Shown here: positions 15,598-33,590 of the stretch, piece by piece
Layout of the letters: each line of letters opens with the position of its first letter
How positions within the stretch are numbered: position 1 is the stretch's first letter
NCBI RefSeq assembly: GCF_020055675.1
Contig: NZ_JAIPUS010000004.1
Span: 1-64,000, forward strand
Source of the DNA: Marivita sp.
GTDB taxonomy: Bacteria > Pseudomonadota > Alphaproteobacteria > Rhodobacterales > Rhodobacteraceae
DNA length: 64,000 nt
Reading direction: 5' to 3'
Notes under the pieces: model-generated
Databases searched by the model: none
What the model saw: only the letters and a program-made list of their open reading frames with translations
What the model was told of the DNA's origin: nothing
Made by a program: the position numbers and the translations under genes

Positions 15598-18500
15598 ATG
15601 CCTGTTCAAATTGGATCGCAAACCATTGACGGAACGCTTGCTGACTGGACAGACGACGACCTGCTGTATGTGGATAGCGGACCAAGAAAATACGCGCTCT
15701 ACGGCGCGATAAGTTCGGATGGATTGGTTTTTGCGATTAGTGGGGCAGCACCAATCGGCGAGAATACGACGATCTGGCTGGACACGGATCTGGATCGGTC
15801 GACGGGACATCAGATCTGGGGGTTCGCGGGGGGCGCGGACTACAATATCGAGATCGCCGCCGATGGCACGGCTGCGCTTTACACCGGCGCGGCCGGGGAT
15901 GTGTTCATTGCAGATCTCGAAATTCGCTACAACGACGATGCCACGGTGGCGGAAGTTGCGGTTCCTTTGGCGGCGGCCGGGATCACCGATGCCGTTCGGG
16001 TCTATGCCGACATCAACAACGAGGTCTTTCTGCCCGGCGATTACTCCAATGTTGACCTCATCGTTGGAAATGATGGTCAGACCTTTGCTGACCCAGTTGC
16101 CGTTGGAGCGCTCACGCTTGATGGCGACCTGACGGATTGGGAGGGTACGGCGCCGCTCTTTATCGCCGAGGATGGATCGTCCATCCAAGGTCAGATCAGC
16201 GAAGACAGCGCGGTGTTCGCGCTGACTTCGCCAGTCCCGATCGGGGCAGCCACGACGATCTGGCTGGACACGGACCTGGATCGGTCGACGGGACATCAGA
16301 TCTGGGGGTTCGCGGGGGGCGCGGACTACAATATCGAGATCGCCGCCGATGGCACAGCTGCGCTTTACACCGGCGCGGCCGGGGATGTGTTCGTTGCAGC
16401 TCTCGAAATTCGCTACAACGACGATGCCACGGTGGCGGAAGTTGCGGTTCCTTTGGCGGCGGCCGGGATTACCGATGCCGTTCGGGTCTATGCCGACATC
16501 AACAACGAGGTCTTTCTGCCCGGCGATTACTCCAATGTTGACCTCATCGTTGGAAATGATGGGGCCTCTCCGTCTCCGCAGGACCCCGTCGATTTCGGCC
16601 CCTATACAATTGACGGAGAGTTGACGGAATATGCCGCCGAAACCCTGCTTTATACCGATGGGATCGCTTTTATAAACGGTGACGTCGTGGAGGAGGGGCT
16701 GGTGATCGGCCTGTCCGCAAACGTGCCGATTGGCGGCTCCACGACGATCTGGCTGGATACGGATCTAGACCTTGATACCGGCTACCAGGTTTTCGGCTCA
16801 ACCGCGGGTGCCGACTATAACATCGAGATTTCGGCCGATGGGACCGCCGCACTGTACACAGGTGGGGCAGGAGAGACGTTCGTCGGCGATGTTGATATTC
16901 GCTATTCGGATGATGGGCAGACAGCAGAAATCGCCGTGAACGAATCCCTGGCCGAGTTCGGAGCTCAGGTCAGAATATTTGCGGATATCAACGACTCGGT
17001 TTTTCTGCCCGGTGACTATGCCAGTGGCAACTTGATAGCGGGGACACCAGATCTGCCCCCGGGGTCACCAGACCTGAAGGTTGGCATCGTCTACTCTGAA
17101 ACGTCGGCTGAAAATTACTTCAATCTGACGAATTATGGCCAGCTTGTCATGTCGGCACAGAATCAAGCCATGCAGGCAGGCATTCCCTTTGATTTGCTGG
17201 GCGAAGCAGACCTGACAGACGCTGCGCGGTTGGCCGAATACGATGCCCTTGTTTTCCCTGGTTTCGCCAATGTTCAGACAAGCCAGCTGTCCGAGATCAA
17301 GACGGCGCTGGATATTGCGGTTCAGTCGGGCACCGGCATCGTCGCCGCAGGCAATTTCATGACCAATGACGAAACAGGCGCTGCGTTGCCGGGCAATTCC
17401 TACGCGCAAATGCAATCGTTGCTGGGTGTGACGCTTGACGGGTTTGGCCAAACAGAAGGCGTTGAGGTGTTTGCCCGTGACGGCGGCAATCCCATTCTGG
17501 ACGAATATGATGCGGGTGGCTTGGTCGATTCATATGACACGCTTACGTCTTACGTGAACTTCCGGGACGTAACCGGAACAGGTTCGGTGCTCTTTGATCA
17601 GATCACAACGCTCGATGGTGTCGAAACATCTCACGAGGCTGTCATTGCGACAGAGGTCGCCGGAAACCGCAATGTACACTTTGCCACGGACGCGGTGATC
17701 GGCAATTCGAACATCCTGCACGAAGCGATCGACTGGATCGCGAAGGATGATCCCGGGACCGCAGATGTTGCGCTTCAGATGTCGCGCAATCCATCACTTT
17801 TCTATTCGCGTAACGACATGGATTTGAGCCAAGAGTTCTTTGATGTCGCGATACAGGATCCCGGCATCTATGACAGCCTGAACGCGATTCTGGCGGATTG
17901 GCTCGAAAAATACAATTTCGTGGGCTCCTACTATATCAATGTGGGTGCCAACCCGCCGGATCAGCAGACCGATTGGGCAATCTCGGGTCCGCTCTATCAA
18001 GACCTTCTGGCGATGGGGAACGAGATCGGAACCCATAGCTATACGCATCCTGACGACACCAACCTGTTGGACGGCGATAGTCCTGAGCTTCTGGCACTTC
18101 TGGAGCTTGTTGATCCACGCAATCCGGACTCCATCGACCCTTGGGATTTGACGGCGGCCGAGCAAGACATCCTGCTCAACTCGTATCGCTTCCAGTTCGA
18201 AACGTCGGCTTTCGAGATCGAACAGAAGCTTGGCATCGAGGTGACGGGTGCAGCGGTGCCCGGGGCGCCCGAAACGCTCGATACGTCGCACGAAATAATC
18301 CGTTTCTTTGACTACATGTCCGGCGGATATTCCGGCGAGGGTGCGGGATATCCCGGTGCCTTTGGTTACCTGACGCCAGACCTTCAGGATTCGGTTTACC
18401 TTGCTCCGAACATGTCTTTCGATTTTTCGTTGATCCAGTTCCAGGACAAGACACCAGAAGAAGCGGCTGCGATCTGGGCCGAGGAATTCGCCGATATCAC

Positions 18501-19482
18501 CACCAATGGAGCGACACCGATCATTGCCTTCCCTTGGCATGACTATGGACCAACGGAGTGGCGGTTCGACGGAGAACCATCGAGCTACACGTTCGAAATG
18601 TTCGATAACTTCCTCGCGAGTGCATACGAGGCCGGGACGGAATTTGTAACCGGGCAGGATTTGGCAGACCGCATCGCGACCTTTGAGGACAGCGAATTGA
18701 CCCTGAGCCGAACCGGTGACGTTCTTGCAGCGGACGTTGTTTCAGGCGATGCGGCGGGGCGTTTCGCACTGGACGTAGGCGAACAGATCGCGTCGGTCTC
18801 GGGCTGGTATGCGTGGGACGACAGCCAAGTTTTCCTGCCGCAGAATGGTGGTCAATTCGAGGTGACGCTGGGTGCTGTGGCAGAAGACGTCACGCGCCTG
18901 ACCGCGTTGCCAGACCGCGCGGACCTGGTGTCAGTGACCGGTGATGGCCGCGCCTTGCAGGCGGTGATCGACGGAGGCGGTGTTGCGTCGCTCAACCTTG
19001 GTCCGGAGTGGGACAATGATGCGGTCATCATACGCGGGGCTGACGGCGCAACCAATTGGACCGGCAGCGGGCTTGATCTTGTGCTGGACGGCGGCGTGAA
19101 CGAATTGCTCGTCGACTATGTCGATCAAGGAACCGGCGGCACCATGGAGAGCGAAATCATCCTTGGTGGATCCGCCAAGGATGTCATCGACGGCAGCGGT
19201 GGCGCAGACTGGCTGCTGGGCGGCGCCGGAAAAGACAGTTTCGTTCTTGGGTCAACTTCGGCGGGATCGGTGGTGCTGGATTTCCAGCCAAGCGAGGACA
19301 CCCTGGTTTTCGCATCGGACATCGTTTCCGATCTGTTCCAATGGTCAGATGAAGTAGATGCCCTGAACGATTTTGTGAATCATGACGGTGATGTTCGTTT
19401 GATGGATGGAGATACTGTGTTCCTGACCCTTGTCGGGGTCTCGAAGAGTGAGCTCGAGGCCTGTGATGTTACCTTTGCGTAA
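15598..19482 (+). CDS. Secreted RTX-type polysaccharide deacetylase with sugar-binding-like repeats (Agd3-like layout)
   Basis: A 1294-residue protein without an N-terminal signal. Residues about 1-490 hold three tandem beta-rich units of roughly 160 residues, each with a TTIWLDTDLD and GADYNIEI core, resembling DOMON/CBM9-like carbohydrate-binding modules. Residues about 500-725 look like a Rossmann or amidotransferase-like domain that begins LKVGIVYSE. Residues about 730-1010 form a NodB-type deacetylase with Asp740/Asp742 in SRNDMD, the metal-binding HSYTH at 813-817, and FPWHDY around His981. RTX nonapeptides (GGAGKD) lie at about 1190-1225, followed by a C-terminal tail, as in type I secretion substrates. 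The start at 15598 has GGAG upstream. The order sugar-binding, Rossmann-like, deacetylase recalls fungal Agd3, which deacetylates galactosaminogalactan. Its neighbour is a Pel-like locus. Confidence 0.8.
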   Translation: MPVQIGSQTIDGTLADWTDDDLLYVDSGPRKYALYGAISSDGLVFAISGAAPIGENTTIWLDTDLDRSTGHQIWGFAGGADYNIEIAADGTAALYTGAAGDVFIADLEIRYNDDATVAEVAVPLAAAGITDAVRVYADINNEVFLPGDYSNVDLIVGNDGQTFADPVAVGALTLDGDLTDWEGTAPLFIAEDGSSIQGQISEDSAVFALTSPVPIGAATTIWLDTDLDRSTGHQIWGFAGGADYNIEIAADGTAALYTGAAGDVFVAALEIRYNDDATVAEVAVPLAAAGITDAVRVYADINNEVFLPGDYSNVDLIVGNDGASPSPQDPVDFGPYTIDGELTEYAAETLLYTDGIAFINGDVVEEGLVIGLSANVPIGGSTTIWLDTDLDLDTGYQVFGSTAGADYNIEISADGTAALYTGGAGETFVGDVDIRYSDDGQTAEIAVNESLAEFGAQVRIFADINDSVFLPGDYASGNLIAGTPDLPPGSPDLKVGIVYSETSAENYFNLTNYGQLVMSAQNQAMQAGIPFDLLGEADLTDAARLAEYDALVFPGFANVQTSQLSEIKTALDIAVQSGTGIVAAGNFMTNDETGAALPGNSYAQMQSLLGVTLDGFGQTEGVEVFARDGGNPILDEYDAGGLVDSYDTLTSYVNFRDVTGTGSVLFDQITTLDGVETSHEAVIATEVAGNRNVHFATDAVIGNSNILHEAIDWIAKDDPGTADVALQMSRNPSLFYSRNDMDLSQEFFDVAIQDPGIYDSLNAILADWLEKYNFVGSYYINVGANPPDQQTDWAISGPLYQDLLAMGNEIGTHSYTHPDDTNLLDGDSPELLALLELVDPRNPDSIDPWDLTAAEQDILLNSYRFQFETSAFEIEQKLGIEVTGAAVPGAPETLDTSHEIIRFFDYMSGGYSGEGAGYPGAFGYLTPDLQDSVYLAPNMSFDFSLIQFQDKTPEEAAAIWAEEFADITTNGATPIIAFPWHDYGPTEWRFDGEPSSYTFEMFDNFLASAYEAGTEFVTGQDLADRIATFEDSELTLSRTGDVLAADVVSGDAAGRFALDVGEQIASVSGWYAWDDSQVFLPQNGGQFEVTLGAVAEDVTRLTALPDRADLVSVTGDGRALQAVIDGGGVASLNLGPEWDNDAVIIRGADGATNWTGSGLDLVLDGGVNELLVDYVDQGTGGTMESEIILGGSAKDVIDGSGGADWLLGGAGKDSFVLGSTSAGSVVLDFQPSEDTLVFASDIVSDLFQWSDEVDALNDFVNHDGDVRLMDGDTVFLTLVGVSKSELEACDVTFA
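15766..16076 (+). repeat. Long direct repeat, copy 1 (311 bp)
   Basis: This stretch inside the deacetylase gene recurs 486 bases later at 16252-16562 with only a handful of substitutions that I can count. It codes for residues 57-160. The near-identity at DNA level shows a recent in-frame duplication of one binding module. Confidence 0.9.
16252..16562 (+). repeat. Long direct repeat, copy 2 (311 bp)
   Basis: Second copy of the 311-base repeat, exactly 162 codons after the first, coding for residues 219-322. A third unit starts at 16741 with the same TTIWLDTDLD core but is strongly diverged, so it is the older module. Confidence 0.9.
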
Positions 19483-19530
19483 GAGTAAATATTCATTCGC
19501 GAAAGCCACGGCAAACCGACGGAGACGGCA

Positions 19531-20661
19531 ATGACGAAATGCATACTTGCGACCGGAGGTGCTGGGTATATCGGATCTCACACGACGGTAGAGCTTTTGC
19601 GTGCCGGCCATTCCGTGGTCATACTTGATAATTTCGAGAATTCAGCCCGTGATGCTTTGGCAAGCATTCCGAAAATCGCCGGTGGCGGGAAAATTTGGCT
19701 TGCCGAGGGGGATGTTCGTAACGCCCGCCTCGTCGCTGATGTGATTCAGCGTCATTCAGTCGATGCAGTGATTCATTTTGCCGGCAAAAAGGCCGTTGGC
19801 GAGTCTGTCGCTGATCCTTTGCTTTATTATCACGATAACATCACCGGTGCATTGTCGGTTTTGTCTGCGATGCGAGGGACGGGGTGCAAACGGCTGGTCT
19901 TTTCTTCATCGGCCACTGTTTACGGGGACGTCAAGATGCTGCCGATCCCGGAAACCGCGCCAACATGCAGTTCGAACCCATACGGGCGCACCAAGCTGAT
20001 GATCGAAGAAATCATCGACGATTTTGTTGCGTCCACGGATGATTTTGGTGCTTTGTCACTGCGTTACTTCAATCCGGTTGGGGCGCATCCTTCGGGGTTT
20101 ATAGGGGAAAGTCCAATCGGAACGCCAAACAACCTCTTTCCCTTTATTGCTCAGACCGCAGCAGGCATGCGCGACATGGTTCAAATATTCGGAAACGACT
20201 ACGAAACGCGCGATGGCACGGGCAGTCGTGATTACATTCACGTGGTTGATCTCGCCCGAGGTCACGTTGCGGCCGTAGAGCACTTGCTTTCGCAGACGAC
20301 CAACATCTTGCCACATCGAAAAGTGAATCTTGGCACTGGGAAGGGCCATACCGTGCTCGAGGTGCTGAATACTTTTTCAAAAGTGTGCGGATTCCAGATA
20401 CCTCATCGGATCGTTCCACGCAGGCCTGGAGATGTCGGATTGTCCCTCGCCGATCCGTCGCTCGCGTTTGGGTTGTTCAACTGGAGGGCTGAACTTGGGC
20501 TTGATGAAATGTGCCGTGACCACTGGCGTTTCCAGGCGGCTACGAATGAGCCGCGGGGAAGACGGCGGACTCGTCTGGGAGCAGAGGCTCGCTGGGCAAA
20601 TCGTGTCTGGGAAGACTTTGAAAGCCTTGGCATAGCCGAAGGCAGAAACGCTCTGGCGTGA
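19531..20661 (+). CDS. galE: UDP-glucose 4-epimerase (GalE family)
   Basis: A 376-residue NAD-dependent epimerase of the extended SDR type. The nucleotide site is GGAGYIGSH at residues 8-16, the active site has SSSATVYGD and Tyr-x-x-x-Lys in YGRTK, and RYFNPVGAHPSG follows as in GalE. It interconverts UDP-Glc/UDP-Gal and, in many enzymes, UDP-GlcNAc/UDP-GalNAc. In this setting it would supply the galactose-type sugar nucleotide for the adjacent polysaccharide machinery. It is about 40 residues longer than usual at the C-terminus, with a basic tail. Its stop overlaps the next gene's GTG start by 4 bases, so the two are coupled. Confidence 0.92.
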   Translation: MTKCILATGGAGYIGSHTTVELLRAGHSVVILDNFENSARDALASIPKIAGGGKIWLAEGDVRNARLVADVIQRHSVDAVIHFAGKKAVGESVADPLLYYHDNITGALSVLSAMRGTGCKRLVFSSSATVYGDVKMLPIPETAPTCSSNPYGRTKLMIEEIIDDFVASTDDFGALSLRYFNPVGAHPSGFIGESPIGTPNNLFPFIAQTAAGMRDMVQIFGNDYETRDGTGSRDYIHVVDLARGHVAAVEHLLSQTTNILPHRKVNLGTGKGHTVLEVLNTFSKVCGFQIPHRIVPRRPGDVGLSLADPSLAFGLFNWRAELGLDEMCRDHWRFQAATNEPRGRRRTRLGAEARWANRVWEDFESLGIAEGRNALA

Positions 20662-21614
20662 CACTACTGGGACGCGCATTGCTTCCAATGTATCTTTTGG
20701 CTTCGCCAGTGACCGGCATGGCATGCGGGGTGTCGCAGATTGACCGCTCTGCGAGGTTGGAGGACGCGCTCCAAAACGGGTACGGGGTGCAATACTGGGG
20801 GCCGGATTTCAACGCCGACACGCTGAACCAGGCTTCGCACGGTCTCCTCATCTTGGAGGCTGCGAAAGTCGGAGCCTTGGACACACCTGATGGAAAAGAG
20901 CGTTTTTTCACGCCGGCCGAAATTCAGACTATTGGTCAAGACGGCACAAGACCGGTTCTGGTCTATCTGAATTTGACCGAGGTAGAGCCTTGGCGCGATT
21001 ATTGGCCGTCCGACAAGACCGTCCCGAACTGGGTGGGTCCGGTCACAGCCCAAGGTGATAAACTTGCTGCATTCTGGCGCTCCGAATGGCGCGACATACT
21101 GCATGACCGGGTGGCCCGTCTGTTGGCGACCGGAGCAGATGGTCTCTTTCTTGATGACGCGCTGAACTACTTTGTCTTGGGTTCAATGGCTTCAGATTCT
21201 TCAGGCAAACCGACGAGCATTGAGAGGTCGGCCGGGGTCATGTTGAACCTCGTCAGGGAGATCGCGTCGACGGCGCGAGAGATCCGCTGCGATGCTCTGA
21301 TCGTTGTCAACAACGGCGTCTTTATCGGTCGGGATGCTCCTGCGTCGGCGCGTGATGACTTCGACGCTTACCGTGATGCGATTGACGGCATCATGATCGA
21401 AGACGGGTTTGGAGCGGCGGACCATCCCGATCTGCATGCCGCTCTGAAACAGGATTATCTGGACCGCGATGTGTCCGTTTTATCTCTGGATTTTGCTTCT
21501 GACGTTGAAGCGAAGCCTCTCGCGCAAAAGGCCCGAGACAAGGGATATGCGCCATATATCGTACCAGATGGCAGCTTTTCATACCTTGCACCGCCCGCCT
21601 CACGTTCTCGGTGA
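20658..21614 (+). CDS. GH114/GH166-type endo-polygalactosaminidase-like hydrolase
   Basis: A 318-residue protein with a short N-terminal hydrophobic signal (ALLPMYLLASPVTGMAC) and a TIM-barrel hydrolase that starts NGYGVQYWGPDF. Conserved acids are Asp166/Asp167 in GLFLDDALNYF and Glu248 in IMIEDGFG, the positions expected for GH114 and the related PelA hydrolase domain. These enzymes cut alpha-1,4-linked galactosamine or GalNAc polymers. The GTG start overlaps galE in GTGA. In Pseudomonas this domain is fused into PelA; here it is a separate small protein, probably periplasmic, that trims or clears the polymer during export. Confidence 0.75.
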   Translation: MTLLGRALLPMYLLASPVTGMACGVSQIDRSARLEDALQNGYGVQYWGPDFNADTLNQASHGLLILEAAKVGALDTPDGKERFFTPAEIQTIGQDGTRPVLVYLNLTEVEPWRDYWPSDKTVPNWVGPVTAQGDKLAAFWRSEWRDILHDRVARLLATGADGLFLDDALNYFVLGSMASDSSGKPTSIERSAGVMLNLVREIASTAREIRCDALIVVNNGVFIGRDAPASARDDFDAYRDAIDGIMIEDGFGAADHPDLHAALKQDYLDRDVSVLSLDFASDVEAKPLAQKARDKGYAPYIVPDGSFSYLAPPASRSR

Positions 21615-21656
21615 TCCCGAATCCTGACGGACGATGGCCCCAGGCCAAACAAGGTG

Positions 21657-22913
21657 TCATCGACCAAACATTGCTGCGATATTGGCGTCGGTCTGAGACA
21701 GGGCTTGCAGCCGCTCCAGATATCCGGTGCCTTCGAGATCGCTTGCAATGCGACGCCAGAGCGCTGGATCGGTTTCTTGTTTCGCCGCCTGACGCAAAGC
21801 GGCAAAGGAAGCATCTGGAAACTGCTTCCAGATCGCCCATGCCGCATCGATGAGCGGTGCCTCCGCAAGACGATCATCTGAAAGCCAATGGCGATATGGC
21901 AAAAGTGCCTGCCCGCCTCCGTACCGGACCAGCGGTAAAAGGTATTTGAGGGGCAGGTCGTCTGGAACATCTGGATGCCGTAAGGTTGTTTCCAGCAGAC
22001 CAATATCAGCACTCCAATCGGCATAAAGCGCAAGCGTATTCCAACTTTCACGGTCTGGCGGACCGGTGACGGCCCAGGGCTGTGCCAACATACGGGCAGC
22101 ACCAAAAAGCTCGACCCGGGAGAGCGTGGAGACCAGCAAAGGGCGAGTTTCGGGGGCACTGGCAACCATTTGGGACGCTATGGCGCGTGACTGCTGCGGG
22201 ACTGCCGTCAAAACTGTTGCGATGGGCAAAGCGAGACCTTCGGCGTTGGGACCGCCAAGCCAGTTAGCCATTGTCTTCACGAATTCGCCGGGGTCTTCCG
22301 AAGAAAGTGCAAGTGCCGTGAAGCGTTCTGCTTGCTCTGGCGCATCGGCACCGCCCATCTGGACGGCAGTTTCAGCCAATGCACGCGCCTCCGACGTGGC
22401 GCCCTGGTCCGCAACCAGATCAACAAGTCGCAGTCTTTCGGACCCGGTCAGGTCGGCAAAATTGACAGCCTTCAGTAAAGCCCGTTCGTTTTCGGTGTCT
22501 CCCAACCGATGATAGAGACGTCCCAATCGTTGCCTTTGAAGCTGATCCGATGCAGGGGAATGCGCCTCTTGCAGATGCTCAACCGCCAAAACCAAGTTGT
22601 TCGATCGCAACGCAAGGTCGGCGCGGGCGGTGGCGATTGCGTTGGTATTGCCGCTGCGCTTGGCGAGTGAGGCCAGCAAGGCATCGGCCGTCTTTGCATC
22701 GCCTGACGCCGCGATCAGTTCGGCATGACGAAATGCCAGTTGTGGCGTAAGTTGCTCGTCCATGGCGTCCAGTCTCGCGAGTGACTCCGAAGGCGGCAGC
22801 GAGGCAAGTTCCGCCTCTTGGCCCAATTCTCCTTTGGGCAGCAGGATCAGTGCCGCCGCGGCACCCAGCCCTGCCAATATTATAAGTTTAAGAAGAGGGT
22901 CGCGCCGGTGCAT
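21657..22913 (-). CDS. TPR protein resembling the periplasmic part of PelB
   Basis: A 418-residue protein with one N-terminal transmembrane helix (LLKLIILAGLGAAAALILL) followed by helical repeats in the TPR style, for example LARLDAMDEQLTPQLAFRHA and LGRLYHRLGDTENERALL. No beta-barrel follows, whereas PelB of Pseudomonas continues into an outer-membrane barrel. I placed the start at 22913, where the ATG overlaps the stop of the PelA-like gene; a longer frame starts at 22979. It probably scaffolds polymer and modifying enzymes in the periplasm. The PelB link is inferred from location and repeat type. Confidence 0.55.
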   Translation of the reverse strand: MHRRDPLLKLIILAGLGAAAALILLPKGELGQEAELASLPPSESLARLDAMDEQLTPQLAFRHAELIAASGDAKTADALLASLAKRSGNTNAIATARADLALRSNNLVLAVEHLQEAHSPASDQLQRQRLGRLYHRLGDTENERALLKAVNFADLTGSERLRLVDLVADQGATSEARALAETAVQMGGADAPEQAERFTALALSSEDPGEFVKTMANWLGGPNAEGLALPIATVLTAVPQQSRAIASQMVASAPETRPLLVSTLSRVELFGAARMLAQPWAVTGPPDRESWNTLALYADWSADIGLLETTLRHPDVPDDLPLKYLLPLVRYGGGQALLPYRHWLSDDRLAEAPLIDAAWAIWKQFPDASFAALRQAAKQETDPALWRRIASDLEGTGYLERLQALSQTDANIAAMFGR

Positions 22914-24757: not shown

Positions 24758-24866
24758 AAGATGTAGAATCCAAACTAACGGAGAATTGTGGAAACTTCTT
24801 GGCAAGAATACGGTGCTGTCAACATCAAGTTAAGGCAGAGAGTGTGTTGGGAAAGAAAGGTCTGGA
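24758..24866. promoter_or_regulatory. Divergent promoter region of the polysaccharide genes
   Basis: This 109-base AT-leaning spacer separates the minus-strand PelA-like/TPR pair from the plus-strand export-pelDEFG operon. It must carry promoters for both. I see no perfect dyad. AAAGG lies just ahead of the ATG at 24867 as ribosome-binding site. Confidence 0.5.
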
Positions 24867-26309
24867 ATGTTGAGCACGATGCTCTCGAAGGCTGGGATTG
24901 GTCTTGCCGCATTGATGGTTTTTGGCGGGATCGAAACTTTGCCGTCATTGTTCGGAGTTGAAGGCGCAACGTCACTGGCCACGGGGAGGGTGGCCCCCGA
25001 AGACCCTACCGTCCATCAGGCTCGGCATGAAACCGAGTCCTCTGACAACATGGTTTCGCTGGCGATGTTCAAGGACACGGAACCCAAAAGCCCAAGCCTG
25101 CTCGATCGCATCTTGTCTGGCATCGGTTGCGAAAGCGGCAGCGATGCTGCGGATCGAACAGTTGTTGGCGACCAACTGACATTGCGTGTTTTTGAACATT
25201 CCGAGAGTGATTTTGGACGATTTGAACGACGCGACCTTTCGGGCACGTTTGCCGTCAGCTCCACGGGAGAAATCGCTGTTCCCGGTATTGGACGGGTGAA
25301 GGCTTTTGGAACGCCATTGACCTGTCTTGAAAACGCCGTAAGGGCGGCTCTATCATCGGAAATGAACCTTTCCACAACAGTGACGGCCTCTTTTGCCAAG
25401 CGCCCGCCTGTTCTTGTAAAAGGAGAGGTTATTGCACCCGGCAGTTATGAGTACGTTCCCGGATTGACGGTAGATACGCTCCTTGCAAAGTCGGGGTACG
25501 GCAGCAGCAGTTCGGATGCCGCTCTTCGGCGCAGCTTGGATGCGCGTCGTGACGAATTGCGCACATTGCGCGCGGGGCTTTTGCTTCGGCACAAGCGCCT
25601 GTCGGCCCAGCGTGCAACCGAAGAAACATTTACAATGACGGATGGTACGGCTGCCGTTGTGAACCGCCAAATCGAAGAGGATCGGATCAATAGCGAAGTC
25701 GCCGTGCTGGAAGCCGCGTCAAGCGAGCGCGCAATCCGCGACGCACGGGACACAGCAAGACGTGCAGAGCTTCAAAGTGCGCTCCATCTGGCACTTTCGC
25801 GGCGTCAGATGGTGGCGGCACGCCACGAAGACCTGAAGCGCAAACGCGATGCGCTGGATCTGGAAGTTGCAAAGGAATGTCGCGGCCGATGCAGCTCAAG
25901 CAGGCAATTCGCCCAGTTGCGGCTCGACAGCTTGAATGATCGCGTCGCCGACTTGGATCTGGTCTTGCAAGATGCCGAGACACGCGTGATCGAAGCGCGC
26001 CACGCGCTGAACCGCCATGACAGAACCATCGAGCTAGAGCGCGCTGAAAGCAGCAAGACGCTGGCTCTCGATATTGTCGAGACCCTTGTGAAGCGAAACG
26101 CGATAGATGCTGAATTGGCATCCGTAGAGGGACAGCTGAGGGCGCTGGGCGATCTGGTGGGCCGTGTCGTGACGGTGAAACGTCAGAATGGAAAGGACAT
26201 TCGCATCCTGGAATCCGATGAGACCATGCGCTTGCTGCCGGGTGATATAGTAACGGTCGGCGCTGTTGATGATGCGGCTCTCGCGTCAGCCGAGAGGGTC
26301 TTCAAGTGA
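24867..26309 (+). CDS. Polysaccharide export protein (OPX, ExoF/Wza-type) with long coiled coil
   Basis: A 480-residue envelope protein. It has an N-terminal hydrophobic segment, then a polysaccharide-export domain from about residue 95 (VVGDQLTLRVFE, GEIAVPGIGRVKAFG) and an SLBB unit (VLVKGEVIAPGSYEYVPGLTVDTLLAKSGY). A charged coiled coil covers about residues 210-440, and a short second SLBB-like end follows. No lipobox and no C-terminal amphipathic barrel helix are evident, which is closer to ExoF than to Wza. It probably replaces the PelB barrel and PelC lipoprotein, neither of which is seen here. It is the first gene of a five-gene operon and ends in a GTGA overlap with pelD. Confidence 0.8.
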   Translation: MLSTMLSKAGIGLAALMVFGGIETLPSLFGVEGATSLATGRVAPEDPTVHQARHETESSDNMVSLAMFKDTEPKSPSLLDRILSGIGCESGSDAADRTVVGDQLTLRVFEHSESDFGRFERRDLSGTFAVSSTGEIAVPGIGRVKAFGTPLTCLENAVRAALSSEMNLSTTVTASFAKRPPVLVKGEVIAPGSYEYVPGLTVDTLLAKSGYGSSSSDAALRRSLDARRDELRTLRAGLLLRHKRLSAQRATEETFTMTDGTAAVVNRQIEEDRINSEVAVLEAASSERAIRDARDTARRAELQSALHLALSRRQMVAARHEDLKRKRDALDLEVAKECRGRCSSSRQFAQLRLDSLNDRVADLDLVLQDAETRVIEARHALNRHDRTIELERAESSKTLALDIVETLVKRNAIDAELASVEGQLRALGDLVGRVVTVKRQNGKDIRILESDETMRLLPGDIVTVGAVDDAALASAERVFK

Positions 26310-27349
26310 GAGCTTTGATCGACAATCTATTGGCAGACGAAACCTCAGGCCAAATCTCGGGCCAAACCTCACGCAGCGGTTACGAGGATGCCTTGCGCGG
26401 GATTATTGGAGCAGCGGTCCTGTTGGTGCTGATCGCCGGTGCAGAACCGCTTTTGTTCGGCGCCGGATTTTATGAGACTTTGAAATTACATCCCTTTTGG
26501 ATCGTGATCCTGATCGCGTCTTTACAGCATGGCCCAGGTGTCGGCATCGCAAGTGTGGCCTTGGCGACGTTCCTCATGGGGTGGCCAGACCGCTTTGTCG
26601 GCGAAGACGCTGCTGTCTATGCTGCTCGCGTCGCGGTGCTGCCTCTTCAGTGGCTTGTCGTGGCTCTCATCGTGGGACTGTATAGCCAGCGGAAAATTCT
26701 TGAAACCGAAGGTCTGCGGGCAGAAGTCACGAGGCTCGAGGATGTATCCGACACCCTTGCCGCTGAAATCGAGAGAATGGACAGCCTCGTCTTGGACTTG
26801 GAGCGTGCGTCTGCCGCCAAGTCCGGCGCGACAACGACACAGATCATACCCGATGCGTCGGAGACTTACACCGTTCTTGCACGGGCCTTGCCTGATCTTG
26901 CCGCGCTTGCAGTCGCCCGCGCAAGTGAACTTCCCGCGACCTTCGAGGCCGCGTCTGCAGCCCTCTTCGATGGTCCCGTCGCACTGATCGCAGCGGCACC
27001 AGGAGAAGACCCCTTATTTATCGGGAGTGCGCCTGAATTGGGTTGCAGCCCTGAAGTCATGTCTGCGTCCCTGGGTGCCTTACTCGGACATCAAGATTGT
27101 GACACAGTCAAATTGCAGGATGCTGGTCTCGATGCCGATGGCGCTGCCCGGATCGTTCGGAAATGTGCGCATGTAGAGAACGGATTGACTGCAACGGTTA
27201 TTTTCTTTGCCGAGACTCCCGCGGAAGCTGACGCTGGTGCGCAGCGTCTCGATCTCATAGCCGAGATGGCCCGCATCGCGATTGACAGGGTCAGCCTTGA
27301 CCTCGGCCTCGACAAGAGAGCGAAGAAGCTCTCTCAGAAACGTGGCTGA
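26306..27349 (+). CDS. pelD: PelD-like membrane protein lacking the GGDEF domain
   Basis: A 347-residue inner-membrane protein with four predicted helices in residues about 30-135 (GAAVLLVLIAGAEPLLFGAG, FWIVILIASLQHGPGVG and others). A short coiled coil covers about 135-172 and a GAF-like domain about 180-325. The order matches PelD of Pseudomonas, where an additional GGDEF domain with an RxxD site binds c-di-GMP. Here the protein ends right after the GAF domain (LGLDKRAKKLS), and the stop is followed directly by pelE. The GTG start overlaps the export gene. It probably organises the synthase complex with PelE, PelF and PelG, but c-di-GMP control through this subunit looks absent. Confidence 0.78.
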   Translation: MRALIDNLLADETSGQISGQTSRSGYEDALRGIIGAAVLLVLIAGAEPLLFGAGFYETLKLHPFWIVILIASLQHGPGVGIASVALATFLMGWPDRFVGEDAAVYAARVAVLPLQWLVVALIVGLYSQRKILETEGLRAEVTRLEDVSDTLAAEIERMDSLVLDLERASAAKSGATTTQIIPDASETYTVLARALPDLAALAVARASELPATFEAASAALFDGPVALIAAAPGEDPLFIGSAPELGCSPEVMSASLGALLGHQDCDTVKLQDAGLDADGAARIVRKCAHVENGLTATVIFFAETPAEADAGAQRLDLIAEMARIAIDRVSLDLGLDKRAKKLSQKRG

Positions 27350-28088
27350 CATATCGTTGCTGCGCAGAACTGCCGCGTTTTGTTTGACGCTGGCAGCGGT
27401 TTCAGCCTTTGTGATAGCGATTTACATTGGTTTTTGGTTCGCACTGATATTTTATTGCGCGATTTCTGTCGTGCTGTGTGTCGCGCTCACGCTTTTCGAT
27501 CGGCATGATGCAGGATTTTTTGCCATTGCCGTGTTAACGCTTGGCCCATTTGCCGGCCCGGTCATCATGATCGCAACCATGGGTGCAAAACGCAGGCAAC
27601 CCCAAATATCATTCGAAGCCCATCGAGACATCCCGAGCGACACGCGTGCCGACCTTTTATTCCAGGAAATCGCAGAAGACCGCCGGCCACGTGGCCGGGA
27701 CGCGTTGGAACCTCCTTTGGAAGACGTATTCCTGTCCGGAACGCTCACGGATCAGCAAACGGCTTTGGCCGCGATCGTCAAACATTACACCGCTGATCTG
27801 CGCCCTGTATTAGAGCGCGCGCTTGCCTCTGAAATTCCTGCAGTGCGTGTTCAGGCAGCTTCTGTCTTTGCACATCTGAGGGATACATTTGCAGCGCGCG
27901 CCCGAAGGCTATTGCAGGGTGAGCATGCGTTGTCCGGTGAGGCGCTCGATGCTGAAATTTCAGCGGTATCGGGGTCCGGCTTTGTAGACCCTGCGGAGCT
28001 TGAAGCTGTGCCGCGCCCGGCGCCAACACCTGACTCGGGATCAGTCTTGGAAAATCCGAAGCTCAGAAATGAATTGATTTCGACATGA
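27342..28088 (+). CDS. pelE: PelE-like inner-membrane protein
   Basis: A 248-residue protein with two adjacent hydrophobic helices (about residues 8-28 and 29-75, LTLAAVSAFVIAIYIGFWFALIF region in parts) and a cytosolic helical domain rich in Ala/Glu/Arg that could hold TPR- or HEAT-like repeats (AVRVQAASVFAHLRD). PelE of Pseudomonas has two membrane helices plus TPRs, and the gene sits between pelD and pelF as there. The GTG at 27342 overlaps pelD by 8 bases; the open frame starts earlier but inside pelD. The assignment is mainly by topology and gene order. Confidence 0.65.
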   Translation: MADISLLRRTAAFCLTLAAVSAFVIAIYIGFWFALIFYCAISVVLCVALTLFDRHDAGFFAIAVLTLGPFAGPVIMIATMGAKRRQPQISFEAHRDIPSDTRADLLFQEIAEDRRPRGRDALEPPLEDVFLSGTLTDQQTALAAIVKHYTADLRPVLERALASEIPAVRVQAASVFAHLRDTFAARARRLLQGEHALSGEALDAEISAVSGSGFVDPAELEAVPRPAPTPDSGSVLENPKLRNELIST

Positions 28089-29593
28089 CCGATACACGCT
28101 GTGCAGATGTCTGTTTGGTAGTTGAAGGATGTTATCCTTTTGTCACTGGGGGGGTGTCATCCTGGTTGGATTGGCTCATCCGGGAGCAGAAAGATAAAAG
28201 TTTTTCCGTGCTCGCAATTACCGCAGACGACAGCGTGCAGGACGTGAAATACTCCCTGCCAGACAATGTGTTGAACCTTGAAGTCCTGCCGCTTAGCACC
28301 ACGCAAAAACGTATGCGACTGGGAGACCCGAAAATCGACGCTTCGGTGTTTGGCGATGCGCTGGTGCGGCTATGGGAAAATGGCGACGCAGATGCGTTTG
28401 ATGTGCTGTGCGACCTTGCCATGACACCGGCGCGCCGGGGGTTCCCGTCTGTGCCAGGTCGGGCGGTTCGGCCCGATCACGCCGACCTGATTTCTTCAAC
28501 ACCAGCTTGGGACGCTATCGAAAACTGCGCGAACAATCTTGCGCCGGAGGCCGCCTTTTCGGATTTTTTCTGGGCGTGGCGCACGCTGGTTGGCGGGATG
28601 GTCTCTGTCCTGACATCGCCCGTGCCCCCGGCGCGCATTTATCATGCAATTTCCACAGGATATGCCGGGCTTTTTGCGGTGAGGGCCGCGCGGGAAACCG
28701 GTGCGCGGATCGCACTCACCGAGCATGGCATCTACACCAATGAACGACGTATTGACATGGTGATGGCCGACTGGCTGGGAGACCGCGTTCGAAAAGGCTT
28801 TACGCTCAAGGATCCGCGGCGTGATACCCGTGACCTTTGGATCGCAATGTTCGAGAGTTTTGCCAAGGTCGCCTATGCGAGGGCTGATCGGATCACAACG
28901 CTTTACAGCGCCAACCAGGGATTCCAGCGCGCGCTGGGCGCCCCCGAAAATCGTCTTTCTGTCATTCCAAACGGCATCGCGTTGGAGAGGTTTGATGACC
29001 TGAAACGCCCCTCAAACAAGGCACGACCAGTTGTCGGTTTGATCGGACGTGTGGTTCCGATCAAGGATATCGAAGCATGCATCCGTGCAGCCGCAGTGAT
29101 CCGGGAGACTGTGCCTGACGTCGAAGTGTTGATAATCGGACCGACCGATGAAAACCCGGAATATTATGAAGCCTGCAAAAAACGGGTGTCCGAACTGAAC
29201 CTCGATACAACCGTCCGTTTCATGGGGCGCATGAATATTTTCGAAATTCTGACATCGCTTGACGTCTTGCTTCTGACGTCGATCAGTGAGGCGCAACCCC
29301 TTGTCCTGCTCGAAGCCGGTGCCGCGCGGATTCCCTGCGTCGCGACCGATGTCGGTTCGTGCCGGGAAATCATAGAAGGTTCAGAAACGGAGTCCCCGGC
29401 GCTTGGGCGCGGTGGGTTCGTCGTGCCGCCAATGGACCCGGATGCGCTCGCCGCAGCGGTGATCTGTCTTTTGTCGGATGAAACGCTCCGCCTTGAATGT
29501 GGTGAGGCCTTGCGCGCCAGGGTCGAACAAAGCTTCACCTCGCGATCCTCTTCGGCCGCTTACGCCGCGCTCTACGAGGAACTCGTGGCATGA
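28085..29593 (+). CDS. pelF: Pel-type GT4 glycosyltransferase
   Basis: A 502-residue cytosolic glycosyltransferase. The N-terminus VVEGCYPFVTGGVSSW is characteristic of PelF, and GYAGLFAVRAARETGARIALTEHGIYTNERRI follows in parts. The GT-B second half has VIPNGIALERF, GLIGRVVPIKD and the EX7E element in SEAQPLVLLEAGA. PelF polymerises a UDP-activated hexosamine or hexose at the inner membrane. The ATGA overlaps at both ends couple it to pelE and pelG, which form the membrane part of the synthase. It is the clearest marker of a Pel-type locus in this window. Confidence 0.92.
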   Translation: MTDTRCADVCLVVEGCYPFVTGGVSSWLDWLIREQKDKSFSVLAITADDSVQDVKYSLPDNVLNLEVLPLSTTQKRMRLGDPKIDASVFGDALVRLWENGDADAFDVLCDLAMTPARRGFPSVPGRAVRPDHADLISSTPAWDAIENCANNLAPEAAFSDFFWAWRTLVGGMVSVLTSPVPPARIYHAISTGYAGLFAVRAARETGARIALTEHGIYTNERRIDMVMADWLGDRVRKGFTLKDPRRDTRDLWIAMFESFAKVAYARADRITTLYSANQGFQRALGAPENRLSVIPNGIALERFDDLKRPSNKARPVVGLIGRVVPIKDIEACIRAAAVIRETVPDVEVLIIGPTDENPEYYEACKKRVSELNLDTTVRFMGRMNIFEILTSLDVLLLTSISEAQPLVLLEAGAARIPCVATDVGSCREIIEGSETESPALGRGGFVVPPMDPDALAAAVICLLSDETLRLECGEALRARVEQSFTSRSSSAAYAALYEELVA

Positions 29594-31008
29594 GCTCAAG
29601 CCCTTACTCCCAGCTAAAACTGCGCGCTGTCCTGAGGCAGGCCGATTGGTGGCTGGACGGACCCATCCTGAAACCGCTTCACAATCTTCTCGCCGCCTTG
29701 GTTCTGGCGGCTGGTCCTTGGCTCCTCGTGATCGTTACTTTGATCTTGATCTCCTGGACAGCTGACAACCGTTTCACAGACGAGGCCCTGGAGGACATGC
29801 GTCTCGCAGTTGTCTATGCCTTCATGCTCGCACCCATTGTGGCGGCACCATTGGGTATTATTGCAGCTCGAACGATCGCCGATACGGAAGTGCCACCCGA
29901 CGCGTCGGCCGTTGGTGCGCTGCTGTTGGTGGTGTGTGGTGTGGCCGGGACCGCTGCAGAAGTCTTGGTTATCATCGTCGTGCTGGTTCTCGGGGTGTCG
30001 AATCCTGCCTTGACACTCGCGTTTGCCTTGCTCACGTCTGCCTCCGCAATGATGTGGGTGGCATTCGCAGTTCTGGCTGCATGCAAAGCGCGTCGACATC
30101 TGATCCTATCTTTTGCCACAGGCTTGTTCATTGCCGTTTTGCTGAGCGTTGGTGTCGCAGATCGTGCAGGCAGCGGAAGTGCTTTGGTGTGGTGTTTCAC
30201 GTCCGGGATCGTCTTTTGTCTTGCCCTTTGTCTTTCACCATTTCTGAACATCAGACATCAGCTTGCCGAATTGCGCCATGCTGCTGGACAGCTACGCCTG
30301 TGTGCCAAAAAAACATGGCCGCTCGCTGTGGGGGCTTCCTTGGCGATCATGGGGATTTGGGCTGACAAATGGATTGTCTGGTTCGGTCCTGGCGGTCAGA
30401 GCTCTGTCGCCGGTTTCCGTCACATGCCCACGTACGACAGTGCACTGTTCCTTGCCCAGCTATCCACGCTGCCCGGTCTTGCAAGCCTGGCCATCTATTT
30501 CGAAGAACCTGTGCGCCGTGCGATGGATCGGTTTCGGGCGAAGCTGGCCAACGGGGCGACGTTGCGCGCTGCAAATTTGTCGGGAATGGCGGTATCAGAA
30601 ATGATCTGGACTGGTATACTTCGTATCATGATGACGCAGTTCGCGGTTTCTGCCGCGCTGTTGTTGTTGGCCCCTGTGATTGCATCAGCAATGGGCCTGA
30701 GGCTTGACCAGTTCTTGGTCCTTCGTATGGGAATTGTTGGAACGTTGCTGCACGCATTGTTTCTCGCTGCTTCTGGCGTCCTGGTGTTATGCAATGCCAA
30801 AATGGCCTTTCTGATCCTGCAAGCCGCGTTTCTGACTGCAAATCTTTCTCTCAGTGCAGTTTTGACACCTGTGTTTGGTGTGAACGCGCTTGGATTCGCG
30901 CTCGCTTCGGGACTGACCAGCATTTTTGCATGTGTGGTCGCATTCGAAACAACGAAAAAGTTAATTGCTTATTTATTCATTTTTGGAAACGATACTGTAT
31001 TAAATTAA
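29590..31008 (+). CDS. pelG: PelG-type inner-membrane polysaccharide transporter
   Basis: A 472-residue polytopic protein with about twelve hydrophobic helices in the MOP/flippase style. The opening RQADWWLDGPILKPLHNLLAALV region, the WADKWIVWFGPGG loop and the TYDSALFLAQLSTLPGL segment match PelG. It forms the translocation channel for the chain made by PelF. The ATG overlaps pelF. It is the last gene of the operon; an AT-rich 313-base spacer follows with no clear terminator hairpin. Confidence 0.88.
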   Translation: MSSSPYSQLKLRAVLRQADWWLDGPILKPLHNLLAALVLAAGPWLLVIVTLILISWTADNRFTDEALEDMRLAVVYAFMLAPIVAAPLGIIAARTIADTEVPPDASAVGALLLVVCGVAGTAAEVLVIIVVLVLGVSNPALTLAFALLTSASAMMWVAFAVLAACKARRHLILSFATGLFIAVLLSVGVADRAGSGSALVWCFTSGIVFCLALCLSPFLNIRHQLAELRHAAGQLRLCAKKTWPLAVGASLAIMGIWADKWIVWFGPGGQSSVAGFRHMPTYDSALFLAQLSTLPGLASLAIYFEEPVRRAMDRFRAKLANGATLRAANLSGMAVSEMIWTGILRIMMTQFAVSAALLLLAPVIASAMGLRLDQFLVLRMGIVGTLLHALFLAASGVLVLCNAKMAFLILQAAFLTANLSLSAVLTPVFGVNALGFALASGLTSIFACVVAFETTKKLIAYLFIFGNDTVLN

Positions 31009-31321
31009 ATTTGAGACCTGACATTGCTACCAAGGTTTCGGGAGAAAAGACATATAAAATTTCTTTTGTGTAACAATCGGTTAAATATCATTCACACGAA
31101 GCAATTTCGCTAAAAAGTTGCATGGTCAAAATGCACTCGGCTACTGGATGAAGAAAGCTGATTTTTTGTGCTTAAGCCGCAAAGCCTTTGGCAGTAAATA
31201 AAGGACCTGAGCCATTTGCGACATCATCCCTGATGATTCGTGGCAAGGTTCATGTCAAAAGATTTATTGTGTCCAGTAAGTGGTGCCGTTGGTGAGCGTA
31301 TAACTGACAGGACTATTTCAC
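31009..31321. promoter_or_regulatory. AT-rich intergenic region upstream of the LuxR-type gene
   Basis: About 310 bases, clearly richer in A and T than the surroundings, between pelG and the regulator. No gene is supported. The low GC and length suggest the promoter and control region of the regulator. The near-dyad TAAC-N5-GTTAA at about 31071-31085 has the wrong spacing for a Crp/Fnr box. Confidence 0.4.
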
Positions 31322-32050
31322 ATGCCGGATGACGGAAGACATAGATCGAACACCGCATATGTCATCTTGATTATAGATGATTGCCCCTTGCGCCGCGCAG
31401 CTTATTTGGCACTTTTTGAACTTTATGGGTCCAGCACTGCCGTTTTAAACCATCGGGATGGTGAAATTCCTGTTGGATCACCCACCCTCAAAGAAGGCGC
31501 TCTCACTTTGGTGGTGTTTGGTGGCTTGCTCATAAGTAGTGCCGATGGCCGTGCTAAGCTCGAGGCTGTATTGCAAAACCGCACGGGCCGCGTGGTTGCC
31601 CTGGTTGAGAACCATACCTCAGATTGTGTCTCTTGTGCGCTCGACATGGAGTTGGGCGGCGTTATACCGGCATCCGAGGAACCGTCAGTAGTTTTTGCCG
31701 CCCTCGATTTCATTGCTGCGGGCGGTTGCTATATCCCGCATGCTTCTACGGCAATCGAGGGATTACAGGACGTGTCACTTCTGCAAGAAAAGGTGGCAGG
31801 CGGGGATAGTCACGAACGGAATGAGACAAACACTGAAGACCTGAGCAAGGCCATAACCGACAGGCCAGTTTTCACCCGCCGTCAAAACGATGTTCTGATT
31901 GACCTTGCGCATGGAAAATCAAACAAGGCGATCGCGGCAAGTTTGGGTATTTCCGAGGCGACAGTGAAAAGTCATATCCGGCAAGTCATGCTCAAGCTGA
32001 ATGCGAAAAATCGAACCCAAGCGGCATTATTAGCGCGGGATCTTGTTTAG
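31322..32050 (+). CDS. LuxR-family regulator with degenerate receiver domain
   Basis: A 242-residue DNA-binding protein. Residues about 12-125 resemble a response-regulator receiver: the acidic pair Asp19/Asp20 is kept in LIIDDCP, but the strand that should end in the phospho-accepting Asp reads VVFGGLLIS, so phosphorylation is unlikely. Residues about 178-240 are a LuxR helix-turn-helix with FTRRQNDVLIDLAHGKSNKAIA and ISEATVKSHIRQVMLKL. Regulators of this layout, such as VpsT or CsgD, often control biofilm matrix genes. Position between pelG and the RTX hydrolase suggests it controls this locus; that is inference. Confidence 0.8.
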   Translation: MPDDGRHRSNTAYVILIIDDCPLRRAAYLALFELYGSSTAVLNHRDGEIPVGSPTLKEGALTLVVFGGLLISSADGRAKLEAVLQNRTGRVVALVENHTSDCVSCALDMELGGVIPASEEPSVVFAALDFIAAGGCYIPHASTAIEGLQDVSLLQEKVAGGDSHERNETNTEDLSKAITDRPVFTRRQNDVLIDLAHGKSNKAIAASLGISEATVKSHIRQVMLKLNAKNRTQAALLARDLV

Positions 32051-32052
32051 CA

Positions 32053-32165
32053 TCATAACCCATTGAGTTTCAAAGCCAGCAGACGCCGGCTCTCAGCCAG
32101 AGCGATGGCAGAGAGCAAGAGCGTCGGATTGCGGTCGTATCGCATTGCCAAAACGCCGCCAATTC
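32053..32165 (-). pseudogene. IS5-type transposase C-terminal remnant
   Basis: Minus-strand reading from about 32165 to the TGA at 32053 gives LAMRYDRNPTLLLSAIALAE followed by about 16 residues. RYD-x-x-(x)n-FLSAIALA is the usual end of IS5/IS1182-like transposases. Only about 37 residues remain and both element ends are missing. The remnant abuts the stop codon of the RTX hydrolase gene, whose C-terminus appears cut short at this junction. Confidence 0.6.
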
Positions 32166-32171
32166 TTGAGT

Positions 32172-33590
32172 TCAGGTTAACGTCCAGAAATCGAATCTGT
32201 CCGGTGCGTCACCTCCCGAAAGGTTGTCGTTGCCGGCGCCACCCATCAACATATCGTTTCCTGCCCCTCCAAAAACCGTGTCATGGCCGGCCATGCCCTC
32301 CAACTGATCGTGGCCTTCGTTGCCGAACAGCATGTCATGGCCCCCGCCGCCGATGATGGTGTCGTTGCCTCCCAACCCAAAAACGATATCGTTCCCGCCA
32401 AGCGCGTAAATAAGATCGTCGCCGGAGGTTCCGAAAACGAGATCATCCCCATCACTTCCAGTTATCGTTGCACCGTATCCGGAGCCGATAAAGATGGCAT
32501 GTGTTTGAGGAATGTCAGTCGACGTGAAGACATCATCCGGAAGCTGGCCCTGGATCGGTGCGTAGTCAGCGGTTTGCGGGTTATGCGCAGCGGTCGGGGT
32601 CCCGACCGTTGTTGAGAGCGCATCTAGAAGCGCCAGCCAAGTGCCAGACAGGGCTTCGGGCAACGTGTCGCCCCATTCGATCGACAAAAGTTGTGTGTTT
32701 GTTCCTGACAGATTCCTGGCAACCTCGACGAGGAAGTGCGGATTTTGCAGAAAGTTGTTCTCCATTACGAGAAAATCAATGTTGGCCAGAAAGGCTTCGA
32801 CTTGCGAGCTGTCTTGCGCATATCCCGCGTCCCACCGCAAATAACCGCCACCATTCAGTGCAATCGACGTGTCGTCGTCGGCCCCGTCCAGCGCATCGAG
32901 ATGTGCTGCAACGGCGTTCACCAAGTCCATCATGTCGGCAGCAGTGGCCGTCACGCCATCTGCCGCATAATAGCGACCGACATCGTCAAGAAAAAAATCT
33001 CTGTATCCGGCTGCGAAAAGCGTTTCGACCTGGTCCAGGACGATATCCCACCACGAACCTTCTGGTGCTATGACAGGTTGACCTGCATTGGGTAAAGGCA
33101 CGGCACCATCGCTGAAATCCACAATGGGGCCATAGACCGTTTCTTCCGTCGAACCTCCTTCCGGAGGGCCGGTTGCAACACCAAGTGCGTTTTCAAGCCA
33201 CGAAGGCACATCCGCGTCCGGATTCAACGGCATCACGTCTTGATTGATATCAGGTTCAAAAGACGTAAAAGCGGAGCCGGTTTGGTCCAAAGTCCAGCTA
33301 TCCTGCCAATACGTCCTGTAATGGTCCGTAATGCCAAGGTTGACATACCCAAAGACGTGGCGTGTTCCATCTCCATCCGTGTCAGCACTCCGGATTTCGA
33401 GCATCTGGTCGGGCGTAAAAAACGTCACTCCGGGGGTGCCGGTCGCGCGCGACGTCAGGCCCGTCTCAAGGAATATAAGGTCCGTCTCCGAGACCAAAAG
33501 TTGTTCGAAAACCGGGCCATATGCGCGCCCGCCATCTGGTTGCCGCGCTCCGGTGAGTAAAAAAACAAAATTATCTGCAACGGGTGGCAT
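32172..33590 (-). CDS. RTX-repeat GH114-like polysaccharide hydrolase, apparently C-terminally truncated
   Basis: A 472-residue protein without signal peptide. Residues about 5-365 form a TIM-barrel of the GH114/GH166 sort, with Asp202/Asp203 in FFLDDVGRYY and Glu277 in FLVMENNF, matching the acids of the neighbour at 20658. Residues 379-461 are about nine RTX nonapeptides (GGNDIVFGL, GGAGNDMLM), which bind calcium and mark type I secretion. Only eleven residues (APDRFDFWTLT) follow, whereas RTX exoproteins usually continue 50 or more residues with the secretion signal. A transposase remnant begins directly after the stop. ATG 33590 has AAGG upstream. It is probably an extracellular Pel-like polymer hydrolase, secretion possibly impaired. 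Confidence 0.78.
   Translation of the reverse strand: MPPVADNFVFLLTGARQPDGGRAYGPVFEQLLVSETDLIFLETGLTSRATGTPGVTFFTPDQMLEIRSADTDGDGTRHVFGYVNLGITDHYRTYWQDSWTLDQTGSAFTSFEPDINQDVMPLNPDADVPSWLENALGVATGPPEGGSTEETVYGPIVDFSDGAVPLPNAGQPVIAPEGSWWDIVLDQVETLFAAGYRDFFLDDVGRYYAADGVTATAADMMDLVNAVAAHLDALDGADDDTSIALNGGGYLRWDAGYAQDSSQVEAFLANIDFLVMENNFLQNPHFLVEVARNLSGTNTQLLSIEWGDTLPEALSGTWLALLDALSTTVGTPTAAHNPQTADYAPIQGQLPDDVFTSTDIPQTHAIFIGSGYGATITGSDGDDLVFGTSGDDLIYALGGNDIVFGLGGNDTIIGGGGHDMLFGNEGHDQLEGMAGHDTVFGGAGNDMLMGGAGNDNLSGGDAPDRFDFWTLT

What the first reader, a model, noticed from the sequence alone, without database searches (positions are those of the whole stretch)
15598..33590. A Pel-like locus equipped with two RTX-repeat modifying enzymes, matching the fungal galactosaminogalactan toolkit
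Seen: galE, a GH114/GH166-like hydrolase, PelA-like, PelD/E/F/G-like proteins and an OPX export protein are flanked by a NodB-type deacetylase and a second GH114-like hydrolase, both without signal peptide and both with RTX repeats. Known: the Aspergillus galactosaminogalactan set comprises an epimerase (Uge3), a GT4 synthase (Gtb3), Ega3 (GH114) and Agd3 (deacetylase with binding and Rossmann-like domains), and Pel is a related GalNAc-rich polymer. Inference: this bacterium makes a partly deacetylated galactosamine-type polymer whose final trimming and deacetylation happen outside the cell through type I secreted enzymes. I do not know of a described Pel locus with this arrangement.
Basis: partly seen in the sequence, partly recalled or inferred. 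Interest (0 to 1): 0.85.

Follow-up and report, generated by a model that had tools for sequence, protein, structure and literature searches.

The report
Pel locus with a secreted deacetylase
In this bacterium and several relatives, the genes for a sticky sugar polymer called Pel go with a broken or missing copy of the enzyme that normally trims the polymer inside the cell envelope, and next to them sits a differently built enzyme of the same shape that appears to be sent outside the cell to do that job.

The parts
15598..19482 (+). Deacetylase-like protein (1294 aa), probably secreted: three ~155-aa N-terminal repeats, alpha/beta domain, NodB-fold deacetylase, beta-rich domain, short RTX-type tail
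15604..17049 (+). Three N-terminal repeats (15604-16074, 16096-16560, 16588-17049) without a convincing Pfam or PDB match; relatives have 1-4 copies
17008..19029 (+). Core modelled (pLDDT 90.3); same domain layout as PelA without its hydrolase
19531..20661 (+). galE, UDP-hexose 4-epimerase
20658..21614 (+). GH191-type hydrolase; N-terminus reads like a signal peptide (periplasmic, inferred)
21657..22979 (-). TPR-like protein, possible short counterpart of the PelB TPR part (profile and gene order only)
22913..24805 (-). PelA remnant: catalytic base of motif 1 replaced, motif 2 deleted, motif-5 histidine lost
24867..26309 (+). OPX outer-membrane polysaccharide export protein
26306..27349 (+). 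PelD-like protein without the GGDEF part
27282..28088 (+). PelE-like protein
28085..29593 (+). PelF, GT4 glycosyltransferase
29590..31008 (+). PelG, inner-membrane exporter
31322..32050 (+). LuxR-type regulator, kept beside the locus in several relatives
32172..33590 (-). GH191-type hydrolase with RTX repeats; catalytic Asp/Glu kept (D202, E277); short C-terminus

Best explanation
This is a Pel-type exopolysaccharide locus in which polymer modification has moved out of the periplasmic PelA protein. PelF and PelG, with PelD/E, make a GalNAc-rich chain and pass it over the inner membrane (known for Pel, inferred here). A periplasmic GH191 enzyme stands in for PelA's hydrolase domain. The PelA remnant, whose deacetylase part is largely deleted in the window, is kept at most as a scaffold. 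The chain leaves through OPX plus a short TPR protein while still acetylated (inferred). A distant PelA-like deacetylase, exported by type I secretion, then makes it cationic outside the cell, and an RTX-tagged GH191 trims it there. Shown: the genes, the loss of PelA catalytic residues, the conserved catalytic motifs and PelA-like predicted fold of the other enzyme, its linkage to pel genes, and a type I system in the genome. Inferred: secretion, activity, substrate, and the order of export and deacetylation.
Against: Three genomes have both the deacetylase and an intact PelA (G472, G785, G788), so the two can coexist. Some 'inactive' PelAs have lost little more than motif 2: L020 keeps both motif-1 Asp and the motif-5 histidine, L022 has E for both motif-1 D and keeps motif 5, G006 (L032) keeps both motif-1 D; inactivity is inferred from the mutants above, not measured. 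Even the window's PelA keeps an Asp at the D530 place. PelA inactivation may be one event on the PelA tree (SH-aLRT 94), and only 4 well-supported independent pairs exist on the PelF tree, on average 2.5 for, 0.1 against, 1.4 neutral: too few for significance. Of 26 alphaproteobacterial forms of the deacetylase 18 have a strict RTX repeat, 11 have three or more and 8 have none (2 of these 8 are cut by contig ends), and three gammaproteobacterial forms read as having a Sec signal and have none, so type I export is not shown for all. The RTX hydrolase of the window lacks the usual tail. No sequence homology of the deacetylase to PelA is detectable (hhalign probability 1.5). One other PF01522 deacetylase lies elsewhere in the genome. 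glmS also stands beside pel in Paraburkholderia, where no match of the deacetylase was found on the plasmid, so it marks the polymer, not the enzyme.
Confidence: 0.6

Rival explanations
1. The secreted deacetylase adds a second, outer round of deacetylation. PelA loss is a side effect of the switch to OPX export, not of replacement.
For: Three genomes keep an intact PelA with the deacetylase. OPX follows dead or truncated PelA closely.
Against: PelA was also not found in Roseomonas-type and Devosia genomes, whose fetched loci show no OPX but have the deacetylase.
Confidence: 0.2
2. The bacterium makes a fully acetylated or different polymer; the RTX enzymes act on foreign polymers, such as those of competitors or algae.
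For: G217 and two MAGs have the deacetylase without a PelF match.
Against: 20 of 23 searched genomes with it have PelF; gene order is shared with pel over genera; glmS/galE lie beside it in many.
Confidence: 0.08
3. The locus is decaying and makes nothing.
For: PelA is truncated, PelD lacks GGDEF, the RTX hydrolase tail is short, and one Cereibacter PelA is split.
Against: PelF, PelG, OPX, the deacetylase motifs and the gene order are kept across genera.
Confidence: 0.05
4. The deacetylase is a bacterial Agd3 (CE18) member, and the system is a bacterial counterpart of the fungal one.
For: Agd3 also has alpha/beta, esterase and beta-rich domains, and bacterial homologs lie near Pel-type genes (PMC7229062).
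Against: Motif 1 is DxD instead of DD and motif spacing is 71 instead of 132; PelA is the best structural match; Agd3 is not matched in the profile search of PDB sequences.
Confidence: 0.07

Closest known systems
Pel system of Pseudomonas aeruginosa (PelA CE21/GH166)
   Same: PelF, PelG, PelD/E-like proteins and a PelA homolog; the deacetylase-like protein has PelA's domain layout
   Different: PelA has no hydrolase domain and no complete deacetylase active site; OPX plus short TPR protein where PelB/PelC would be; GGDEF part of PelD missing; deacetylase apparently exported
Agd3 (CE18/CBM87) of Aspergillus and bacterial homologs
   Same: Extracellular deacetylase of a GalNAc polymer, multi-domain, linked with GH114-type genes (PMC7229062)
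   Different: Motif 1 and motif spacing differ; best fold match is PelA; no sequence match found
Bacillus cereus PelADA (CE26)
   Same: Separate deacetylase outside the membrane in a pel operon (PMC13254593, abstract and passages)
   Different: Membrane-anchored, proposed to bind PelG, in a Gram-positive; here RTX-type export in a Gram-negative
GH191 (TM1410, Env-GH191)
   Same: Hydrolase profile matches with the catalytic pair kept
   Different: One of the two carries RTX repeats

Membership tests
Pel biosynthetic locus | PelF glycosyltransferase and PelG transporter | tested here: met
   NF038011 405 bits, cut-off 100; PF16933 198 bits, cut-off 29
Pel biosynthetic locus | PelA with active CE21 deacetylase | tested here: not met
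   Catalytic base replaced, motif 2 deleted, motif-5 His lost
Pel biosynthetic locus | PelD with GAF and GGDEF parts for c-di-GMP | tested here: not met
   GGDEF part absent from the alignment, GAF part reduced
Pel biosynthetic locus | PelB TPR-barrel and PelC at the outer membrane | tested here: inconclusive
   Short TPR-like protein and OPX found; no profile of PelB barrel or PelC was run
Pel biosynthetic locus | Partly deacetylated alpha-1,4-GalNAc product | not testable with these tools
   Needs sugar analysis
CE21 (PelA deacetylase), for the 15598 product | Fold and domain layout of PelA | tested here: met
CE21 (PelA deacetylase), for the 15598 product | Sequence homology and His in motif 1 (H526) | tested here: not met
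   hhalign probability 1.5 against 9 PelAs, 7 of them inactive ones; Arg at the place I align with H526 in 23 of 23
CE18 (Agd3) | Adjacent DD in CM1 and over 120 residues between CM1 and CM2 | tested here: not met
   DxD and 71 residues (Agd3 numbers from PMC7229062)
CE18 (Agd3) | Structural match to Agd3 | tested here: inconclusive
   Not among the 50 rows shown
CE4/NodB fold | NodB fold with HxxxH metal motif | tested here: met
GH191 | Profile match to TM1410/9ep5 and Asp/Glu pair | tested here: met
   4.6e-49 and 8.8e-48; D202/E277 invariant
Type I secreted RTX protein | RTX repeats and a type I transporter in the genome | tested here: met
   Clear in 32172, weak and below Pfam cut-off in 15598; LssB+HlyD
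Type I secreted RTX protein | Export by the type I system | not testable with these tools
   Needs a secretion assay

The most novel reading that the evidence does not exclude
A Gram-negative Pel pathway with both PelA activities externalised. The polymer is exported acetylated through OPX. It is then deacetylated and cut outside by two type I secreted enzymes. One of these is a distant PelA look-alike that has taken over from a dead PelA. This would break the rule, drawn from P. aeruginosa, that Pel must be deacetylated before export.
Probability: 0.45. Interest if true: 0.8.

Novelty: new variant of a known kind. Interest (0 to 1): 0.7.

Why it matters
In P. aeruginosa a single change of the PelA catalytic base leaves no Pel detected outside the cell, and deacetylation is held to be needed for export (PMC10269871, abstract and passages). 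PelA active sites have been described as conserved across many phyla (PMC12022489, abstract and passages). Here is a set of pel loci, including named strains such as Cereibacter sphaeroides EBL0706 and Sulfitobacter indolifex DSM 14862, in which that active site is incomplete and a PelA-shaped enzyme with export features sits beside it. That makes two open questions testable: whether Pel can cross the outer membrane acetylated, and whether matrix charge can be set from outside the cell.

Tried and rejected
Agd3/CE18 membership was considered and not accepted (motif spacing; no Agd3 in the profile search of PDB sequences; not in the 50 rows, which does not exclude it). Sequence kinship of the deacetylase with PelA: hhalign found none. 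Identity of the N-terminal repeats: no convincing PDB or Pfam family (best E 0.12 and 0.027). A frame continuation of the short 32172 C-terminus: none seen. Phylogenetic significance: the sign test cannot reach 0.05 with the pairs available. Literature, open-licence PubMed Central only, listings seen: 20 of 30 listed; 1 of 1; 8 of 8; 2 of 2; 20 of 23; 14 of 14; 10 of 16; 10 of 45. In these listings I saw no description of this locus; the only listed paper with both PelF and OPX letters is an unrelated eye-health survey. A second structure job and a Foldseek job could not be placed.

Rows dropped before the 26/20 count: genomes with the deacetylase but no PelF match (G217, G787, G789); L018 (genome not held; part of PelF seen); L024 (another contig of the strain of L004). 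L077 was left out of the pair test as a copy of L126. L002, L003 and L008 were judged on their loci, not on whole genomes; L008 is counted although its stretch ends before PelF (galE, hydrolase, TPR and PelA genes seen). Absence of the deacetylase in the 20 was judged with one query at E 1e-30. 'Intact' means both motif-1 D, both motif-2 H and the motif-5 H; G407 counts as intact though it has Q for the motif-1 His. Of the three 'not found' without the deacetylase, G456 is 68% complete and G629 shows only part of PelF. Completeness of genomes reached through loci is not told, so some of the 12 'not found' may be gaps. On plasmids 6 of 7 with and 8 of 16 without the deacetylase were fetched; the Cupriavidus campinensis PelA lies in two frames with motifs kept.

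Full report
What is there. The window belongs to a 3.60-Mb genome in 82 contigs. Within 15598-33590 lie, in order: a 1294-aa protein, galE, a GH191-type hydrolase, a TPR-like protein and a PelA-like protein on the other strand, an OPX protein, PelD-, PelE-, PelF- and PelG-like proteins, a LuxR-type regulator, and an RTX hydrolase on the other strand. As far as the fetched stretches reach, the order deacetylase, galE, hydrolase, TPR, PelA, OPX, PelD-G recurs in Roseivivax marinus, four Sulfitobacter, three Paracoccus and three Cereibacter records and in G006; S. indolifex has a toxin-antitoxin pair inserted. In two Paracoccus, L008 and G006 glmM and glmS, and in Cereibacter glmS, stand between the deacetylase gene and galE; GlmM and GlmS of L006 pass their curated cut-offs. 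GlmS relatives are seen beside the locus in ten relatives in all. That fits a supply line to UDP-GalNAc; Paraburkholderia has glmS beside pel without the deacetylase.

PelA has lost its deacetylase. The 630-aa PelA of the window matches PelA of P. thermotolerans only in two stretches. In an alignment of PelA homologs, motif 1 reads ILLADGW where intact ones read HIDGDGW, so the base (D528 of P. aeruginosa PelA) is L while an Asp remains at the D530 place; motif 2 (H600, H604) is deleted and the motif-5 histidine (H761) is replaced (residues from PMC12022489, passages). L002, L003 and L004 have the same truncation. Seven others are full length without both motif-2 histidines; of these the two Methylobacterium PelAs keep the motif-5 histidine, L020 also both motif-1 Asp, and G006 both motif-1 Asp. 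In P. thermotolerans PelA, Ala at either motif-2 histidine left no detectable esterase activity, so I read these as inactive.

Association. Genomes or loci with the deacetylase in a pel context (26): PelA truncated 4, without motif-2 histidines 7, not found 12, intact 3. PelF-bearing genomes without it (20): intact 17, not found 3, degenerate 0. Fisher p is 5.8e-7, but rows are related. On the PelF tree the 'not found' state with the deacetylase needs 4 changes (some long branches); on the PelA tree, a quick one, the inactive PelAs can be one branch side; the paired test is underpowered. The plasmid collection is a partly separate check: 7 records hold the deacetylase, all 7 among the 23 with PelF. 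Of those fetched, 0 of 6 with it and 8 of 8 without it have intact PelA motifs. A PelA profile built finds beta- and gammaproteobacterial PelA, so the absence in the three gammaproteobacterial MAGs is not likely plain insensitivity, though incomplete genomes may add to it.

The hydrolases. The profile of both window hydrolases and 13 relatives matches TM1410 (4.6e-49) and Env-GH191 (8.8e-48), then the PelA hydrolase (1.6e-19), then Ega3 (7.6e-7). The GH191 catalytic pair (Asp156/Glu225 of TmGH191, PMC12054363, passages; chain offset 26 worked out by me) falls on the invariant D202 and E277 of the 32172 product. An RTX form is also found in Cereibacter (right after the regulator) and in G021. 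The window copy ends early.

Export. The genome has a LssB-type ABC protein (697.5, cut-off 693.1) followed by HlyD (322.7, cut-off 208.65), and a second HlyD after a partial ABC protein at a contig end. TolC-family and ABC-transporter genes lie upstream of the deacetylase on two Sulfitobacter plasmids. OPX stands in the dead or truncated PelA loci whose stretch reaches it, in Microvirga and beside the Blastochloris deacetylase, but not in the fetched Devosia and Roseomonas-type loci; it is in 1 of 17 loci without the deacetylase, 13 of which have a TPR protein of 747-1095 residues instead. In P. aeruginosa the PelA D528A change leaves no extracellular Pel, and PelC is proposed as an electronegative funnel (PMC10269871, passages). 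An OPX route would remove that need; this is inference.

Known and new. PMC7229062 (section 13 and passages) reports bacterial Agd3 homologs in or near exopolysaccharide operons, some with Pel-type genes and GH114 genes. PMC13254593 (abstract and passages) reports a separate Pel deacetylase in B. cereus. PMC12022489 (passages) states that PelA active sites are conserved. PMC7112194 (passages) describes pel operon rearrangements and losses. I saw no account of a dead or missing PelA with an RTX-type PelA-like deacetylase in the listings. I therefore rate it a new variant of a known kind.

Noticed in passing
window 26306-27349 (+): The PelD-like protein lacks the GGDEF part of other PelDs, and in L007 and L032 PelD is about 200 residues of membrane segment and coil; control by c-di-GMP is doubtful, while a LuxR-type regulator gene sits beside the locus in several relatives.
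   Followed up: partly
window 34340-34958 (+): Pieces of a dihydropyrimidinase-like frame in two overlapping frames, read by eye as a decayed gene.
   Followed up: no
L036 (G217), L025, L026: Relatives of the deacetylase in genomes without a PelF match, one as a 2652-aa protein.
   Followed up: no
L134, 22900-23951: A RES/Xre-type toxin-antitoxin pair is annotated inside the pel locus of Sulfitobacter indolifex between the hydrolase gene and the TPR and PelA genes.
   Followed up: no
L134-L138, L147, L148: In two Sulfitobacter, one Paracoccus and three Cereibacter records the locus lies on plasmids of 243-314 kb, typed as non-mobilizable.
   Followed up: partly
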